Assembly (NCBI RefSeq): GCF_003386535.1
Contig: NZ_QTTN01000008.1
Span: forward strand, 62,001-126,000
Reading direction: 5' to 3'
Length of the DNA: 64,000 nucleotides
DNA from: Paenibacillus taihuensis
Lineage (GTDB): Bacteria > Bacillota > Bacilli > Paenibacillales > Paenibacillaceae
In this document: positions 3,450 through 59,183 of the stretch, in pieces
How positions within the stretch are numbered: position 1 is the stretch's first letter
Layout: each line of letters opens with the position of its first letter
The notes under the pieces: model-generated
Told to the model about the DNA's origin: nothing
The model's database searches: none
The model's input: only the letters and a program-made list of their open reading frames with translations
Position numbers and translations under genes: made by a program

Positions 3450-3983
3450 ATGTTAGCATTCACTATGAAACAAGAGTACCTAAACGACCGCATTCGCGTC
3501 GTACAAGCTCAACCATCCGATTCAGATGATATCATGAACCTGCTCGTCTCCATAGCTCGTTGGCTGCAAAGCAAAGGATCTACGCAATGGAGCGGCCTGC
3601 TGCATGGCAATGACCATCATAATGTGACTGGCCATATCGAGAAAGGCGAGCTCTTCATGTTCAAGGACGGCGACACGCTCGCAGGCATCGTGCTGCTCAT
3701 GCAAGTGCCTGGCGAGTGGGATCACGGTCTGTGGGGCCCAGACGGACATGAATCAATCGTTTACCTGCACCGACTCGCGATTAGCCGCGAATATGCCGGA
3801 ACGGGACTCGGCGCTGACATCATTCGATGGACGGAGCAAGGCATCTCCTTCCCAGGCAAAGACCGTATCCGCCTCGACTGCATTGCGGACAACGAGTCGC
3901 TGAACAAGTTCTACAGCGGGATGGGCTACGAGTTTAAAGGCACCTCGCCAAGCGGCTTCTGCTTGTACGAGAAATATGTATAA
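3450..3983 (+). CDS. GNAT family N-acetyltransferase
   Basis: 177 residues. The GNAT fold is seen from LAGIVLLMQ (beta 3-4), VYLHRLAISREYAGTGLGADIIRW (about 105-130, acetyl-CoA pyrophosphate loop in the form EYAGTGLGA, replacing the usual Q/RxxGxG/A) and IRLDCIADNESLNKFYSGMGYEFKG (alpha-4 and beta-6/7). Transfers an acetyl group from acetyl-CoA to an amine; the acceptor is unknown. It is a single gene with its own promoter and a strong terminator. An in-frame second ATG six codons in is an alternative start. Confidence 0.88.
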   Translation: MLAFTMKQEYLNDRIRVVQAQPSDSDDIMNLLVSIARWLQSKGSTQWSGLLHGNDHHNVTGHIEKGELFMFKDGDTLAGIVLLMQVPGEWDHGLWGPDGHESIVYLHRLAISREYAGTGLGADIIRWTEQGISFPGKDRIRLDCIADNESLNKFYSGMGYEFKGTSPSGFCLYEKYV

Positions 3984-3987
3984 GAAA

Positions 3988-4020
3988 ACAAGGACCGAGA
4001 GCTAAGCTCTCGGTCCTTGT
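3988..4020. terminator. Bidirectional terminator between GNAT and aminopeptidase genes
   Basis: A perfect 16-bp inverted repeat (ACAAGGACCGAGAGCT and its complement) around one central base. It stands between converging genes, 4 bases from each stop; the minus-strand reading is followed by TTTTCTTA, the plus-strand reading by a shorter T run. Confidence 0.85.
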
Positions 4021-4024
4021 GATT

Positions 4025-5266
4025 TTAGAACGCCCAGTTGCCGCCGCGGAACACCGGTTCAACGGAACCGTCCTGGCGTACGCCGTCAATATCGAGATCT
4101 GCGTTGCCAATCATGAAATCGACATGCGTCAAGCTGTTGTTGAGTCCGCGCCCAGCCAGCTCTTCCTTGCTCTGGCCATTGCCGCCCTCGATGCAGAACG
4201 GGAAGGCAAAGCCAATTGCCAAGTGGCAAGCCGCATTCTCGTCGAACAACGTGTTGTAGAATGTCAAGTTCGTATCGGAGATTGGCGAGTGGAATGGAAC
4301 AAGCGCGATTTCGCCAAGGAAGTGCGAGCCTTCATCGGTCTCGACCAGCCCTTTGAGGGCATCGTAGCCTTGCTCTGCTTGGTACGCTGTGATGCGGCCA
4401 TTCGTGAACGTGATCGAGAATTTATCGATCAGATTGCCGTTGTAGCTGAGCGGCTTGCTGCTGTACACCGTGCCGTTAATGGTGTCTTTGTGCGGCGAAG
4501 TGAATACTTCCTCCGTCGGCATGTTCGGAATAAACACGCTGCCTTGCTTATTCTTCGCGCCTGCGCTGACCCAGATATGACCGTCCGGCAAGCCGATCGT
4601 CACGTCTGTGCCCGAAGCAGCGGAGCGGTAACGAAGCTCCTTGTATCTGCGCTCATTCAGACGTTCAGCCTTACTGTGGAGACCTTCCGCATGTTCTCGC
4701 CAAGATGCGATTGGATGGTCTGCATCCACACGAGTTGCTGCGAAGATCGCTTCCCACAGTGCTCCAACTTGCTCGCCTGATGACGCCAGGTCTGGGAATA
4801 CTTTCGCCGCCCACTCCGGTGTCGGTACCGCTACGATCGACCAAGCACAATCATTGCTGAGCGTATATTTGCGGAATGGCTGAAGCGCAGTCTGCGCCGG
4901 TTTCGTCACGGCAGAGATACGCGATGCGTCGATCCCGTTCAGCAGATCAGGATTGTCGGCTGTAATCCACAGGAACGCCGCTCCTTCTTCCGCCAGCTTC
5001 ACGCGACCGTCAACGATCCACTCCGGATAGAAAGTAAGACCTTCATCCGGCGATTTCTCCAGGCGTGTGCGAACGATCTGTTCGTCCGTCCACTCCACAT
5101 GAACGTAGCTTGCTCCAACCTCATACGCATGTTTGACGACGAGACGCACGAATGGCGCCGCCTCTACTTGGGTCATGATGCACAGCTTCTGACCTGGCTG
5201 GATGTTAACGCCTACTTCTACGGCCAGCGCCGCATATTGTTCTAATCGATGCCCGAATGAGTTCAT
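4025..5266 (-). CDS. Aminopeptidase, M29 (AmpS/AmpT) family
   Basis: 413 residues, the usual length for the M29 family of cytoplasmic two-metal aminopeptidases that remove N-terminal residues from peptides. The family order is visible: VEVGVNIQPGQKL near the N-terminus, YVHVEWTDEQIVRTRLEKSP, the central LPDGHIWVSAG, then FIPNMPTEEVFTSPHKDTING, where Glu and His are likely metal ligands, ITAYQAEQG, and HVDFMIG near the end. AGGAG stands 9 nt before the ATG. It is a stand-alone gene between a terminator and a divergent non-coding gap. Confidence 0.92.
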   Translation of the reverse strand: MNSFGHRLEQYAALAVEVGVNIQPGQKLCIMTQVEAAPFVRLVVKHAYEVGASYVHVEWTDEQIVRTRLEKSPDEGLTFYPEWIVDGRVKLAEEGAAFLWITADNPDLLNGIDASRISAVTKPAQTALQPFRKYTLSNDCAWSIVAVPTPEWAAKVFPDLASSGEQVGALWEAIFAATRVDADHPIASWREHAEGLHSKAERLNERRYKELRYRSAASGTDVTIGLPDGHIWVSAGAKNKQGSVFIPNMPTEEVFTSPHKDTINGTVYSSKPLSYNGNLIDKFSITFTNGRITAYQAEQGYDALKGLVETDEGSHFLGEIALVPFHSPISDTNLTFYNTLFDENAACHLAIGFAFPFCIEGGNGQSKEELAGRGLNNSLTHVDFMIGNADLDIDGVRQDGSVEPVFRGGNWAF

Positions 5267-21305: not shown

Positions 21306-21318
21306 TTGTGCTTTTAAC

Positions 21319-21354
21319 GAACCCCCTCCAACTTTAGCGAGTTGGAGGGGGTTC
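21319..21354 (+). terminator. Terminator after the CapA-like gene
   Basis: A perfect 15-bp stem (GAACCCCCTCCAACT at 21319-21333 with 21340-21354) and a 6-nt loop, followed by TTGTTA. It ends the response-regulator-to-CapA transcript. Confidence 0.85.
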
Positions 21355-21401
21355 TTGTTATCTGGCCGGCTCTTCACGTGCTTTGGTGGTAGCAGTATGC
21401 C

Positions 21402-35281: not shown

Positions 35282-35374
35282 AATAAAGAAGCTTATACAC
35301 ATGAAAAGAAGCTTAGACAAAAGGAAAAGAAGCTTACACGCGAATAATTCGATTCGCTTGTGTAAGCTTCTTTT
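35282..35374 (-). terminator. Terminator of the dynamin gene with extra copies of one arm
   Basis: A 15-bp stem (AAAAGAAGCTTACAC at 35325-35339 with 35360-35374) caps an inner GCGAAT/ATTCGC stem. Two further copies of the left arm occur at 35284-35297 and 35304-35316 (AAAGAAGCTTA core). In the minus-strand transcript these form three successive 3' arms that could each pair with the single 5' arm. It lies about 100 bases past the dynamin-like gene stop. Confidence 0.7.
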
Positions 35375-35472
35375 CTGTTTATTTATGCAAATGTGAGAAT
35401 CCGCTCGTGAAAAAGCTAAGTGTAACAGCCAATTTAAATAGCTAACCTGCTAAGCCAACCAGCTCAAAAGTG

Positions 35473-45383: not shown

Positions 45384-45470
45384 CTTTCACCTCGGTGTCT
45401 TTATTCGCTTATTTAGACGCAATATGGCAGAAAAAGTTGCGTTTTGAGGAAATTTGTAGTACTTCGGCAT

Positions 45471-45507
45471 AAAAAAACAACTCCGGTATATCGATACCGG
45501 AGTTGTT
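45471..45507 (-). terminator. Terminator of leuCD
   Basis: A perfect 14-bp stem (AACAACTCCGGTAT at 45476-45489 with 45494-45507) and a 4-nt loop. The minus-strand reading continues in a run of seven T (45471-45477). It lies 33 bases past the leuD stop. Confidence 0.85.
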
Positions 45508-45540
45508 CTTATAAATCCGCTTGTTTTACGCGAAACTGGC

Positions 45541-49493: not shown

Positions 49494-49630
49494 TGTTTTG
49501 CCTCCTTGATCACTAGCTGAACCGACCTTATTTGCTCAGTTTTACCTTATCATAACGTCTCATGCTTCGCTGTCAAGATGGGTACCGTAACTAGGAAACC
49601 ACCATGACCGACTTCAAAGGAGACTTCGTG

Positions 49631-50089
49631 ATGAACATGTTAAAAATGTACCGTAAGCACTTTATAGCCGTTATCGCCTTATTCCTCTGCTTGATGATTC
49701 CTGCTGCAGCAGGCGCTGCTATGCATGATGAAGGCGGAGGCGCAGATCAGCGGCCTGTCCAAGCATTTGACGTTGTTCAAGGCAAAGTCGTCAAGTCCGT
49801 TCCGAACAGCCCCGAGTTTCAAGGCTACGCTAAGTCTTGGCTGAATGGCGTGACAGGTTTGTCGCCGAAACTGTCCGCCGATGACAAATGCGGCTATGTG
49901 TTCCGTATTCCGCTTGACCAGCCAACAGCTGTGAAAGCTGGTAATGCGCAAGTGATGACACAGGACGTCTTCCTCTTCTACTGCCCGAAGAAGCCGCAGC
50001 TGCTACTCGTCTTCGATGAGAATCGCAAGCCGTACTTGCTCACCTTCAAAGGCAACATTAAGCCGTTCCTGAAGGCGATGGATTTGTAA
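49631..50089 (+). CDS. Exported protein of unknown function, 152 residues
   Basis: A signal peptide (about 1-29, KMYRKHFIAVIALFLCLMIP then AAAGAAM) precedes a 120-residue mature domain with VVQGKVVKSVPNSPEFQGYA and FRIPLDQPTAVKAGNAQVMT, ending TFKGNIKPFLKAMDL. The mature part has two Cys (DKCGYVFR, FYCPKK) which could form a disulphide. The ATG at 49631 is chosen because AAAGGAG lies 8 nt upstream; earlier in-frame starts overlap the ribosome site. No known family recognised; it lies between mtnU and mtnE. Confidence 0.78.
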   Translation: MNMLKMYRKHFIAVIALFLCLMIPAAAGAAMHDEGGGADQRPVQAFDVVQGKVVKSVPNSPEFQGYAKSWLNGVTGLSPKLSADDKCGYVFRIPLDQPTAVKAGNAQVMTQDVFLFYCPKKPQLLLVFDENRKPYLLTFKGNIKPFLKAMDL

Positions 50090-50142
50090 AATTTGCTATC
50101 CCCCCACCAAGAGCAAATCAATCTTGACTATTGGAGGCATTT

Positions 50143-50265
50143 GGTGCGCGGTAGGCGCAGTTCTCGAAATTGCGATTGGGAACGACTTTGGTGCGAAGCA
50201 CCACGGGAGTGACCATCGCAATTTCGAGGCGGAGCCGGCTCTGCACCTTACAGCTCTCCAAAGTC
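50143..50265. repeat. Large palindromic element before mtnE
   Basis: A perfect 14-bp inverted repeat, CTCGAAATTGCGAT (50163-50176) with 50215-50228, encloses an inner perfect hairpin GGTGC-GAA-GCACC (50190-50202) and is itself bordered by GGTGC (50143-50147) and GCACC (50243-50247). GACTTTGG (50184-50191) can also pair with CCAAAGTC (50258-50265). It ends 5 bases before a -35-like box of mtnE, so it is probably outside the mtnE message. It could be a mobile palindromic repeat or a structured RNA. Confidence 0.65.
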
Positions 50266-50342: not shown

Positions 50343-51530
50343 ATGGATGGCACAAAAACATTTCAAATCAACCCGGCAAACCGGATGACCGGTTTGCCTA
50401 CACAATTTTTTGCAGGACTTGTGCGTAAAGCGAATGCGCAGACGGCGAAAGGCCGCGATGTCATCAATCTCGGACAAGGCAATCCCGATCGTCCGACGCC
50501 TGAGCATATTGTGAAGGCATTGCAAGATGCAGCGCCGAACCCGCTCTACCATCGCTATCCGCCTTTCAGCGGCTACCCGTTCCTGAAGCAAGCGGTGGCA
50601 CAGCGTTATAAGGAAGACTACGGCGTCGATCTCGACCCGGAGAAGGAAGTTGCGATTCTGTTCGGCGGCAAAACCGGCCTTATCGAAATTTCGCAATGTC
50701 TGCTCAATCCCGGCGACATCTGCCTCGTACCCGATCCTGGCTATCCGGACTATTGGTCTGGCGTAGCAATTGCAGGCGGCCGCATGGAATACATGCCGCT
50801 CACAGCAGATAACGCCTTCCTGCCGGATTATGACCGCGTCAAGCCGGACATCGCGGACCAAGCGAAGCTGATGTTCATCAACTATCCGAACAATCCGACA
50901 GGTGCAACGGCGGATGGTGCCTTTTATGAGCGAACAGTTGAATTTGCTGCGAAGCACGGCATCGTCGTTGCCAGCGATTTTGCCTATGGCGCTATTGGCT
51001 TTGATGGCAAGCAGCCAGTAAGCTTCCTGCAAACTCCTGGCGCTAAGGAAGTTGGCGTAGAGTTCTATACGCTGTCCAAAACATATAACATGGCAGGCTG
51101 GCGTGTAGGCTTCGCACTCGGTAATTCAGAAATCATCTCGCTTATCAATCTTATCCAAGATCATTACTATTGCAGCCTGTTCGGCGGCATTCAAGCCGCA
51201 GCGGCAGAAGCACTCACCGGCTCGCAGCAATGTGTGAACGATCTCACTTCCGCCTATGAAAGCCGTCGAAATGCGCTCTTCGGAGCGATGGATGAAATCG
51301 GCTGGCACGCAGAGAAGCCAAGCGGCTCCTTCTTCTGCTGGCTTCCAGTGCCGAAAGGCCACACTTCTGCATCATTTTCCGATTATGTGCTGGAGCATGC
51401 GGATGTCGTTTTGGCGCCTGGTATCGGCTTCGGTACTCATGGCGAATCGTACGTCCGTCTTGGCTTGTTAGCGCCAGAAGAACGGCTGCAGGAAGCGATC
51501 CACCGCATCGGCAAATTGAATCTTTTCTAA
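50343..51530 (+). CDS. mtnE: Methionine-salvage aminotransferase
   Basis: 395 residues, fold-type I aminotransferase. NLGQGNPDRPTPEHIVKAL (about 42-60), LFGGKTGLIEISQCLLNPGD, NYPNNPTGATADG and the PLP-Lys site TLSKTYNMAGWRVGF (about 244-258) follow the Bacillus MtnE (YkrV) closely in wording. It transaminates 4-methylthio-2-oxobutyrate to methionine, last step of the salvage pathway. Ribosome site GGTGGAG 10 nt ahead. It is followed by a terminator, so it is a single gene, though mtnW, mtnX and mtnB lie 4 kb downstream. Confidence 0.9.
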   Translation: MDGTKTFQINPANRMTGLPTQFFAGLVRKANAQTAKGRDVINLGQGNPDRPTPEHIVKALQDAAPNPLYHRYPPFSGYPFLKQAVAQRYKEDYGVDLDPEKEVAILFGGKTGLIEISQCLLNPGDICLVPDPGYPDYWSGVAIAGGRMEYMPLTADNAFLPDYDRVKPDIADQAKLMFINYPNNPTGATADGAFYERTVEFAAKHGIVVASDFAYGAIGFDGKQPVSFLQTPGAKEVGVEFYTLSKTYNMAGWRVGFALGNSEIISLINLIQDHYYCSLFGGIQAAAAEALTGSQQCVNDLTSAYESRRNALFGAMDEIGWHAEKPSGSFFCWLPVPKGHTSASFSDYVLEHADVVLAPGIGFGTHGESYVRLGLLAPEERLQEAIHRIGKLNLF

Positions 51531-57818: not shown

Positions 57819-57836
57819 AGGCTAACATTAGCAAAA

Positions 57837-57891
57837 AAAAGGCGATAAAAAGGGCTGCACGTGAATGCGTCAGCACGTTTTATCGCCTTTT
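57837..57891. terminator. Terminator between mtnB and the DUF2515 gene
   Basis: GGCGATAAAA (57841-57850) pairs with TTTTATCGCC (57878-57887), extended by AAAA/TTTT, with an inner CTG/CAG stem. It overlaps the stop region of the converging gene and serves both strands; plus-strand T run TTTTCTT follows. Confidence 0.8.
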
Positions 57892-59183
57892 CTTCTCTCG
57901 TGGAATGCCACTTGAAGCCCTTCAGCCGCAAGCACGGCAAGCTCGATTTTGTTAAGCGCGTAATAATGCTCCTCTGTCATATCGAAGACTCCCGGCAATG
58001 GTAGTTCTGCGAAATACTGATTTAACCTGTCCTTCTCATTCAATGAAATGAACCAATCCTCTCTATCCGGGGCCTCGAACGGGATGTCCTCCCATGCTGA
58101 AGACAGCACTAGGCTGGTCAGCTTTGAAGCACCTGCTCGCAGCTCACAGCCATCCAGCTTCTCGGTATATTTGTCCAAAGAAGCAACTGCATCATGCTCC
58201 TTAGTGAACAGCTGCGGCGCATAATCCGCTCTCGAGCCCGTATGAGGCACCGCACGAACGAAAGCATGCACGCCTGCCCTCACCTCGGGTACGCCGAATA
58301 AGATTGCATACATGCGTTTGCCGAATTCAATTCGCTCCTGCAGATCGCAGAAATTTTCGATAATGAGACCAGCCAGCTTCTTCTCCACTCTGTCAGGTGT
58401 ACAGTAAGGCATGAAAACGGCGTTCGTCTGCATCGGCGATTGCAGCTGAAAGGACAGCTGATTGAGTACATGCTCCTTGAAGAATGGACTTTGCACAATC
58501 GGCTCCTCGATGACATGCTGCTCATTCACGATCAGCGCTGTCGTAAGCAGTGCCGGGTCTCTACGCTTCCAGAACTGCGACCAGACCGGCTTCATAAACA
58601 CGGATACTTGGAAGGCCGGCAGCAAATCGAACAGCTCTCTGCCCGCTTTGCAAGAAGCTTCATAGAGCAGCAGCTGCGGGTAGGCATCATGGAAGATTAA
58701 TGAATTCACACGCTCGAGCAGCAGAAACGTTTCCTCGCGTTGACCATCATCAAGCAGCCTCGGCAGCAGATCGCCTTGCAAGTCCGTCATGTTCCAGCCG
58801 CCATTGCGGGAAACGACATGCGCGAGCAGCGCCCAGTGCAGCTCCTGACAGCGAAAATAAATCGATCGATACGCTTCCGTTCGCGTCACATTGTTCCGGT
58901 TAGCCTGCTCTGTTTCGTGGTGAATCCGATGGATGAGCGCACATTCCTCTTTGGTATATTCCTGCGCTCGACTATTCTCGCCTTGCCGTCCCTTTAACTG
59001 CTTCGCTTGTGCAGTCCAACCTTGCCGCAGCTCCCGGACATACTCCTTGTGCAGCTTCGGAGGCTCTGCATGCTGCAGCAGCTGCTCAGAGCTCATTCTA
59101 GCTCGCCGCTTCATCGCGATGTAGCCAATCAGCTTTAACGGCAGCCGCAATAAGAACAGTAACAGCTTGAGCAGTTGGCTCAT
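57870..59183 (-). CDS. DUF2515 family protein (YppC-like)
   Basis: 437 residues. A hydrophobic, probably membrane-touching N-terminus (SQLLKLLLFLLRLPLKLIGY) is followed by a helical soluble body with NRNNVTRTEAYRSIYFRCQE, LHWALLAHVVSRNGGWNMTDL and EERVNSLIFHDAYPQLLLYE-like segments (RVNSLIFHDAYPQLLLYE). These match my recollection of the DUF2515/YppC proteins of Bacilli, function unknown. The ATG at 59183 has GAGGAGGAAGAGG before it; the frame continues open 25 codons upstream without a site. Its 3' end lies in the shared terminator. Confidence 0.8.
   Translation of the reverse strand: MSQLLKLLLFLLRLPLKLIGYIAMKRRARMSSEQLLQHAEPPKLHKEYVRELRQGWTAQAKQLKGRQGENSRAQEYTKEECALIHRIHHETEQANRNNVTRTEAYRSIYFRCQELHWALLAHVVSRNGGWNMTDLQGDLLPRLLDDGQREETFLLLERVNSLIFHDAYPQLLLYEASCKAGRELFDLLPAFQVSVFMKPVWSQFWKRRDPALLTTALIVNEQHVIEEPIVQSPFFKEHVLNQLSFQLQSPMQTNAVFMPYCTPDRVEKKLAGLIIENFCDLQERIEFGKRMYAILFGVPEVRAGVHAFVRAVPHTGSRADYAPQLFTKEHDAVASLDKYTEKLDGCELRAGASKLTSLVLSSAWEDIPFEAPDREDWFISLNEKDRLNQYFAELPLPGVFDMTEEHYYALNKIELAVLAAEGLQVAFHERRKGDKTC

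What the first reader, a model, noticed from the sequence alone, without database searches (positions are those of the whole stretch)
50143..50265. Nested palindromic element upstream of mtnE
A perfect 14-bp stem encloses a perfect GGTGC-GAA-GCACC hairpin and is bordered by GGTGC/GCACC again; GACTTTGG and CCAAAGTC offer an alternative pairing. It is in the gap between an exported protein gene and mtnE, ahead of the putative promoter. Such size and symmetry are typical for palindromic repeats that spread through genomes, or for a structured RNA.
Basis: partly seen in the sequence, partly recalled or inferred. Interest (0 to 1): 0.58.

Follow-up and report, generated by a model that had tools for sequence, protein, structure and literature searches.

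The report
Nested palindromic repeat family in Paenibacillus
The hairpin in front of the mtnE gene is one copy of a family of small DNA palindromes scattered through one group of Paenibacillus; copies swap their stem letters in matched pairs, sometimes nest inside each other, and also sit beside ribosomal RNA genes, but what spreads or keeps them is unknown.

Summary
The hairpin at 50126-50265 is one of 8 copies in its own genome. It belongs to a dispersed palindromic family found in 18 of 22 genomes of its genus (1-42 copies in those 18), rare in the rest of the order, and not found in plasmids, phages or Rfam. The family is defined by an asymmetric core (GCGACTTTGGTGC-GNA-GCACCACGGGAGC) inside a stem whose letters differ between copies while staying paired: 16 of 25 pairs show changes on both sides. 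At one conserved site (hxlR/sdhB) 13 genomes carry it in the same orientation with different, still matching stems. Copies nest concentrically: in one relative the mtnE element holds a near-copy of itself in its own loop. Other copies lie in pre-23S rRNA, next to the mature ends. No REP-type (Y1) transposase is present in any carrier genome. I read it as a new family of non-autonomous palindromic repeats of the REP/bcr class, with DNA-level upkeep of the hairpin the likelier mechanism. An RNA-processing role is the main rival and is not excluded. There is no evidence that it regulates mtnE.

The parts
50126..50265 (+). whole two-level nested palindromic element (outermost stem GACTATTGGAG / CTCCAAAGTC)
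50143..50247 (+). inner unit bounded by GGTGC ... GCACC (the unit that is doubled in relative G001)
50154..50160 (+). 5' half of base motif GGCGCAG
   Evidence: recurrent in A1
50163..50176 (+). 5' arm of the variable stem, CTCGAAATTGCGAT
50178..50189 (+). 5' strand of the conserved asymmetric internal loop (GGGAACGACTTT)
50190..50202 (+). apical hairpin GGTGC-GAA-GCACC (GNA triloop)
50202..50214 (+). 3' strand of the conserved asymmetric internal loop (CACGGGAGTGACC)
50215..50228 (+). 3' arm of the variable stem, ATCGCAATTTCGAG
50230..50236 (+). 3' half of base motif CGGAGCC
50343..51530 (+). neighbour: aminotransferase gene (mtnE-like), not part of the element
49604..50089 (+). neighbour: small protein gene of unknown family, ORF with a hydrophobic start; not part of the element

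Best explanation
It is one copy of a new family of non-autonomous, dispersed palindromic repeats of a Paenibacillus group. What defines a copy is a hairpin with a fixed asymmetric core (internal loop GCGAC-UUUGG / CCACGGGAGC, usually capped by a C-GNA-G triloop) on a stem whose letters are free as long as the two arms match. SHOWN: dispersal, copy-number variation, presence/absence at orthologous sites, paired change of the arms, tandem arrays, concentric nesting, and copies beside 23S rRNA ends. INFERRED: the folded single DNA strand (or cruciform) is the working form. Arms are kept matched by arm-to-arm template switching and/or selection for the fold. Units multiply locally by slippage or insertion at the recurring GGTGC/GCACC motif (giving nests and tandem arrays) and move to new gaps with an unknown host enzyme. 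The copy before mtnE is shared with two close relatives, so it is an inherited insertion, with no shown role for mtnE.
For: Copies: own genome 8, genus 18 of 22 genomes, 1-42 each in carriers; exact core only in Paenibacillus records, 25 stretches from 7 species or strains. Covariation: A1 (52 rows; 8 of 60 candidate rows with broken or partial hairpins dropped beforehand) 16 of 25 pairs with both sides changed, 150 such cells vs 37 in shuffles. Conserved hxlR/sdhB site (13 of 13 located copies kept): 36 cells changed on both sides, 1 on one side only. Among near-identical copies, single-sided differences make G-T 18 times and A-C 19 times, and many double changes are transversions. Nesting: 11 of 146 copies have both core halves again outside them, control 1 of 146; in G001 the mtnE element holds a near-copy of itself in its apex while G000 and G020 have the plain apex. 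Site L168 is occupied in G015 and lacks the element in G004 and G007. The flanking proteins scanned include no transposase (20 proteins).
Against: No mobilising enzyme was found, and Y1 transposases are absent. No clean insertion with a target duplication was seen; the L168 gap is too diverged to define the junction. All 6 sites of G000 fall into ortholog groups with other genomes, so recent movement is not shown there. Consistent orientation at the hxlR/sdhB site and in rRNA spacers would also suit a functional RNA. The wobble argument is weak: the element's G-T:A-C of 26:19 does not differ significantly from 53:22 in terminator-like hairpins (Fisher p 0.17).
Confidence: 0.6

Rival explanations
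1. A functional structured RNA element: the hairpin works in transcripts as a protein or RNase landing site (pre-23S leader/trailer and UTRs), and the dispersed copies are kept because the RNA fold is useful.
For: Copies lie in rRNA precursors, sense, 2-5 nt before the 23S start or about 15 nt after its end, inside the predicted long-range stalk, in two families of the order. Core U-G pair at columns 37/56 varies only to U-A or C-G, 10 of 10 changes kept. The hxlR/sdhB copies are kept in 13 genomes in one orientation.
Against: In G296 1 of 5 complete 23S genes lacks the 5' copy and another 1 of 5 lacks the 3' copy; G005 lacks it in 3 of 3 readable spacers. Orientation to the upstream gene shows no bias after orthologs are merged (21 same, 17 opposite, p 0.63). 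Wobble pairs are not favoured. No Rfam match at gathering score.
Confidence: 0.3
2. A classical REP element moved by a RAYT / IS200-IS605 type Y1 transposase.
For: Palindromic, mostly between genes, strand-asymmetric mismatches in the stem, tandem clusters.
Against: Y1_Tnp (PF01797) is absent from all 18 carrier genomes; its single hit in the genus is in G011, a genome without the element; the same search rings in 5 of 14 control genomes.
Confidence: 0.03
3. A cis-regulatory leader (riboswitch-like) or terminator dedicated to mtnE.
For: Located in the gap directly upstream of the gene, structured.
Against: mtnE is found in 22 of 22 genus genomes but the element precedes it only in G000, G001 and G020; other copies stand beside unrelated genes; no U-run follows it and the terminator scan does not list it.
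Confidence: 0.04

Closest known systems
bcr1-bcr18 interspersed repeats of the Bacillus cereus group
   Same: Intergenic dispersed repeats of a Bacillus group, often inside transcripts; some with conserved secondary structure (passages of PMC3446304).
   Different: Different hosts; no sequence link was tested. Concentric nesting and 23S-flanking copies are not mentioned in the passages read.
REP / BIME elements with RAYT (Y1) transposases
   Same: Imperfect palindromes with strand-specific mismatches, clustered between genes (REP features recalled).
   Different: No Y1 transposase in any carrier genome; stems are swapped wholesale while the core stays.
Intervening sequences of bacterial 23S rRNA (recalled)
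   Same: Variable-sequence hairpins in rRNA precursors, removed during maturation.
   Different: Here they lie outside the mature 23S, between its ends and the predicted processing stalk, and most copies are elsewhere in the genome.
Stem-loop repeat families of PMC2267715
   Same: A catalogue of repeated stem-loop families in 40 bacterial genomes, some within rRNA precursors (abstract start and passages).
   Different: The Firmicutes rows seen in its table (passages) list no Paenibacillus.

Membership tests
REP elements (RAYT-associated) | Y1 transposase (PF01797) in the host genome | tested here: not met
   0 of 18 carrier genomes; 1 of 22 genus genomes (G011, no element); control rings in 5 of 14
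REP elements (RAYT-associated) | imperfect palindrome, multi-copy, between genes | tested here: met
   (gene calls are rough; many ORFs over arrays are spurious)
MITE (miniature inverted-repeat element) | target-site duplication and terminal inverted repeats of a known transposase | tested here: inconclusive
   site presence/absence seen, but flanks too diverged for a junction; no parent transposon found
Known Rfam RNA family | match at or above gathering score | tested here: not met
   window, 0 matches; 5 loci with copies; 2 weak sub-threshold matches to other families
Conserved structured nucleic acid element | paired compensatory change beyond control | tested here: met
   A1: 150 both-side cells vs 37.4 shuffled, slides 22-37; A4: 36 vs 9.8
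Functional RNA (as opposed to DNA hairpin) | G-U wobble favoured over A-C in stems | tested here: inconclusive
   26 vs 19 (p 0.37); base region 34 vs 86 the other way; near-identical copies 18 vs 19; terminator control 53 vs 22
bcr1-bcr18 | sequence similarity to a bcr family | not tested
   bcr sequences were not at hand

The most novel reading that the evidence does not exclude
A self-nesting hairpin element: a palindrome that copies itself into the apex of its own kind ('Russian-doll' growth), keeps its two arms matched by arm-to-arm DNA copying rather than by selection on RNA, and repeatedly occupies the few nucleotides flanking mature 23S rRNA in two bacterial families, without any known transposase.
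Probability: 0.25. Interest if true: 0.75.

Novelty: new variant of a known kind. Interest (0 to 1): 0.52.

Why it matters
Matched arms in small palindromic repeats are usually put down to selection on RNA or to a Y1 transposase. This family has many copies, rapid paired stem turnover, no Y1 enzyme, and natural plain versus doubled alleles at one site, so it can test arm-to-arm template switching directly. Its presence at the 23S processing boundary also matters for anyone using Paenibacillus rRNA spacers for typing or studying rRNA maturation.

Tried and rejected
Rejected: Rfam family; REP/RAYT or IS200/605 mobilisation; a dedicated mtnE leader; plasmid or phage origin (blastn with the window element: no match; exact core in viral contigs: 0). 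An apparent excess of copies lying sense to the upstream gene in the raw sites (59 same, 31 opposite, 1 none of 91) vanished after better gene calls and merging of orthologous sites (21:17, 8 undecided of 46), so I do not use it. A first wobble count with a bad pattern used only 27 copies and skipped 147 and was replaced. One search, which mixed in the mismatch-rich base motif, gave A-C above G-T (105 vs 60), which is against an RNA reading of the + strand; restricted to the variable stem the two do not differ. The SAM riboswitch was meant as a control for stem turnover, but it is 90% identical over 22 genomes and too conserved to be an equal control. Empty-site junction: the L168 region in G004 and G007 lacks the element, but the gap is too diverged to read a junction. 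Paper searches gave no paper on this element among the listings; most subscription papers are not held, so absence from print is not claimed. Distribution counts: rRNA stretches in several genomes are masked (N), so rRNA-linked copies are undercounted, and the large-sample searches used stricter filters. Not tried: a second, broader covariance model for distant relatives; a search for other recombinase families.

Full report
WHAT IS THERE. The hairpin is real and exact. Arms 50163-50176 and 50215-50228 are perfectly complementary over 14 bp, the apex is GGTGC-GAA-GCACC (50190-50202), and two further layers surround it: GGTGC/GCACC at 50143/50243 and GACTATTGGAG/CTCCAAAGTC at 50126/50256. The + strand folds as RNA with z -6.8 (161 nt) and as DNA with z -5.9 (143 nt). 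The - strand folds well too (z -5.5 as RNA; -6.6 as DNA). Fifty shuffles of the window gave no comparable inverted repeat.

IT IS A FAMILY. Blast found further copies in the same genome and in 14 of 22 genomes of the genus. A covariance model (R1, from alignment A1, 52 rows; 8 of 60 candidates with broken or partial hairpins were left out by me) finds 8 copies in the window's genome and copies in 18 of 22 genus genomes, at most 42 in G015. An exact scan of a large genome collection found the core in 25 stretches, all Paenibacillus: P. sacheonensis, glycinis, artemisiicola, baekrokdamisoli, lycopersici and strains CF384 and OV219. By equal contig lengths these appear to be G015, G004, G002, G003, G007, G019 and G020 (inference). 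Outside the genus it is rare: 21 of 197 family genomes, 17 of them of the genus; 11 of 392 order genomes, including six of one genus (g37) in another family (f6) and three of genus g6; 1 of 398 phylum genomes, the window's own. There were no matches in plasmids, phages or viral contigs.

ANATOMY. The core is CGACTTTGGTGC-GNA-GCACCACGGGAG. Copies were first collected by this core (up to 4 substitutions), so its conservation is partly by selection of rows; the stems were not selected that way. Of 146 distinct copies in the genus set, 129 showed a triloop apex by my simple test and 117 of these have GNA (68 GAA, 38 GGA, 11 GCA); 17 showed no such hairpin. C-GNA-G loops are known as very stable DNA mini-hairpins (recalled; one search shows only listings on GCGAAGC). 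Four of the 17 (L152, L153, L177, L186; genomes G009, G018, G021) keep the internal loop GCGACTTTTG/CAACGGGAGC but carry a longer, unrelated apex, and an rRNA-spacer copy of G018 does the same. So the internal loop, not the apex, looks like the constant part.

STEMS CHANGE IN MATCHED PAIRS. In A1 16 of 25 pairs have changes on both sides, 94.1% of cells pair, and 150 cells changed on both sides (shuffles 37; slid controls 22-37). At the gap between an HxlR-type gene and the sdhB-like gene (domains), 13 genomes carry the element in the same orientation with different stems. In that alignment, with no row dropped, 36 cells changed on both sides and 1 on one side only. Among nearest-neighbour copies differing by 1-2 letters there are 15 fully paired double changes and 47 single changes; at 3-6 letters, 46 and 31. 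Single-sided changes give G-T 18 and A-C 19 in all, so wobble is not favoured. In the variable stem the counts are 26 and 19 (p 0.37), against 53 and 22 in terminator-like hairpins of the same DNA; the difference is not significant (Fisher p 0.17). I take this as a lean, not a proof, towards DNA-level upkeep of the palindrome.

NESTING. In G001 the orthologous mtnE element has, between its GGTGC and GCACC, a second near-identical unit instead of GAA; G000 and G020 have the simple apex. Both core halves recur outside 11 of 146 copies, against 1 of 146 in a control placed about 300 nt away; 8 of these 11 are the one hxlR/sdhB site in different genomes, so independent nests are fewer. Tandem arrays at 100-160 nt are common, including arrays of one arm only (L051).

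RIBOSOMAL RNA. Copies stand just before the 23S start, in sense, at 5 of 5 23S matches of G003, 2 of 3 of G014 (third masked), 1 of 2 of G017 (second masked) and the single match each of G001, G018 and G021; G005 has none at 3 of 3. The single matches of G007 (masked) and G013 (not readable on my printout) were not judged. In G296, of another family, 4 of 5 complete 23S genes have a 5' copy and 4 of 5 a 3' copy; G221 has a 5' copy. A predicted long-range stalk pairs the outer flanks, so the copies sit between stalk and mature ends. This is a place where extra hairpins would be cut off during maturation (inference), which suits both a tolerated insertion and a processing signal.

SETTING AND MOBILITY. 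The 91 genus sites fall into 46 groups by shared flanking proteins (single linkage, rough). All 6 sites of the window's genome are shared with other genomes, whereas G003, G004 and G015 have several of their own. Site L168 of G015 is unoccupied in G004 and G007. No orientation bias remains after merging. Twenty flanking proteins include no transposase. Y1_Tnp is absent from every carrier.

MECHANISM. Best reading: a non-autonomous palindromic repeat whose folded strand, marked by its asymmetric core, is what cell machinery recognises or is led astray by. Local growth by slippage or insertion at GGTGC/GCACC gives arrays and nests; arm-to-arm copying and/or selection keeps arms matched. The enzyme, if any, is unknown. 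Main rival: an RNA processing or stability element.

Noticed in passing
window 3980-4035, 21310-21370, 35315-35390, 45468-45525, 57828-57905: Five other perfect 14-bp inverted repeats in the window, with A- and T-rich flanks; look like ordinary (bidirectional) terminators.
   Followed up: partly
L152, L153 (G009), L176, L177 (G018), L186 (G021): Variants of the element whose GNA apex is replaced by a longer unrelated stem-loop while the internal loop is kept.
   Followed up: partly
L187-L191 (G167), L264 (G370): A more distant relative of the element in genus g6, with shorter apex TGCGAAGCA and core ACGACTTTTGCG, several copies per genome.
   Followed up: no
L051:5175-5607: Tandem array dominated by the 5' half of the element (about 69-nt unit), as if one arm had been copied repeatedly by slippage.
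   Followed up: no
L250-L257 (G238, family f6): Dispersed, partly tandem copies with core GACCTTTGTGCGAAGCACAACGGA in another family of the order; no rRNA match in the four of these eight loci scanned.
   Followed up: partly
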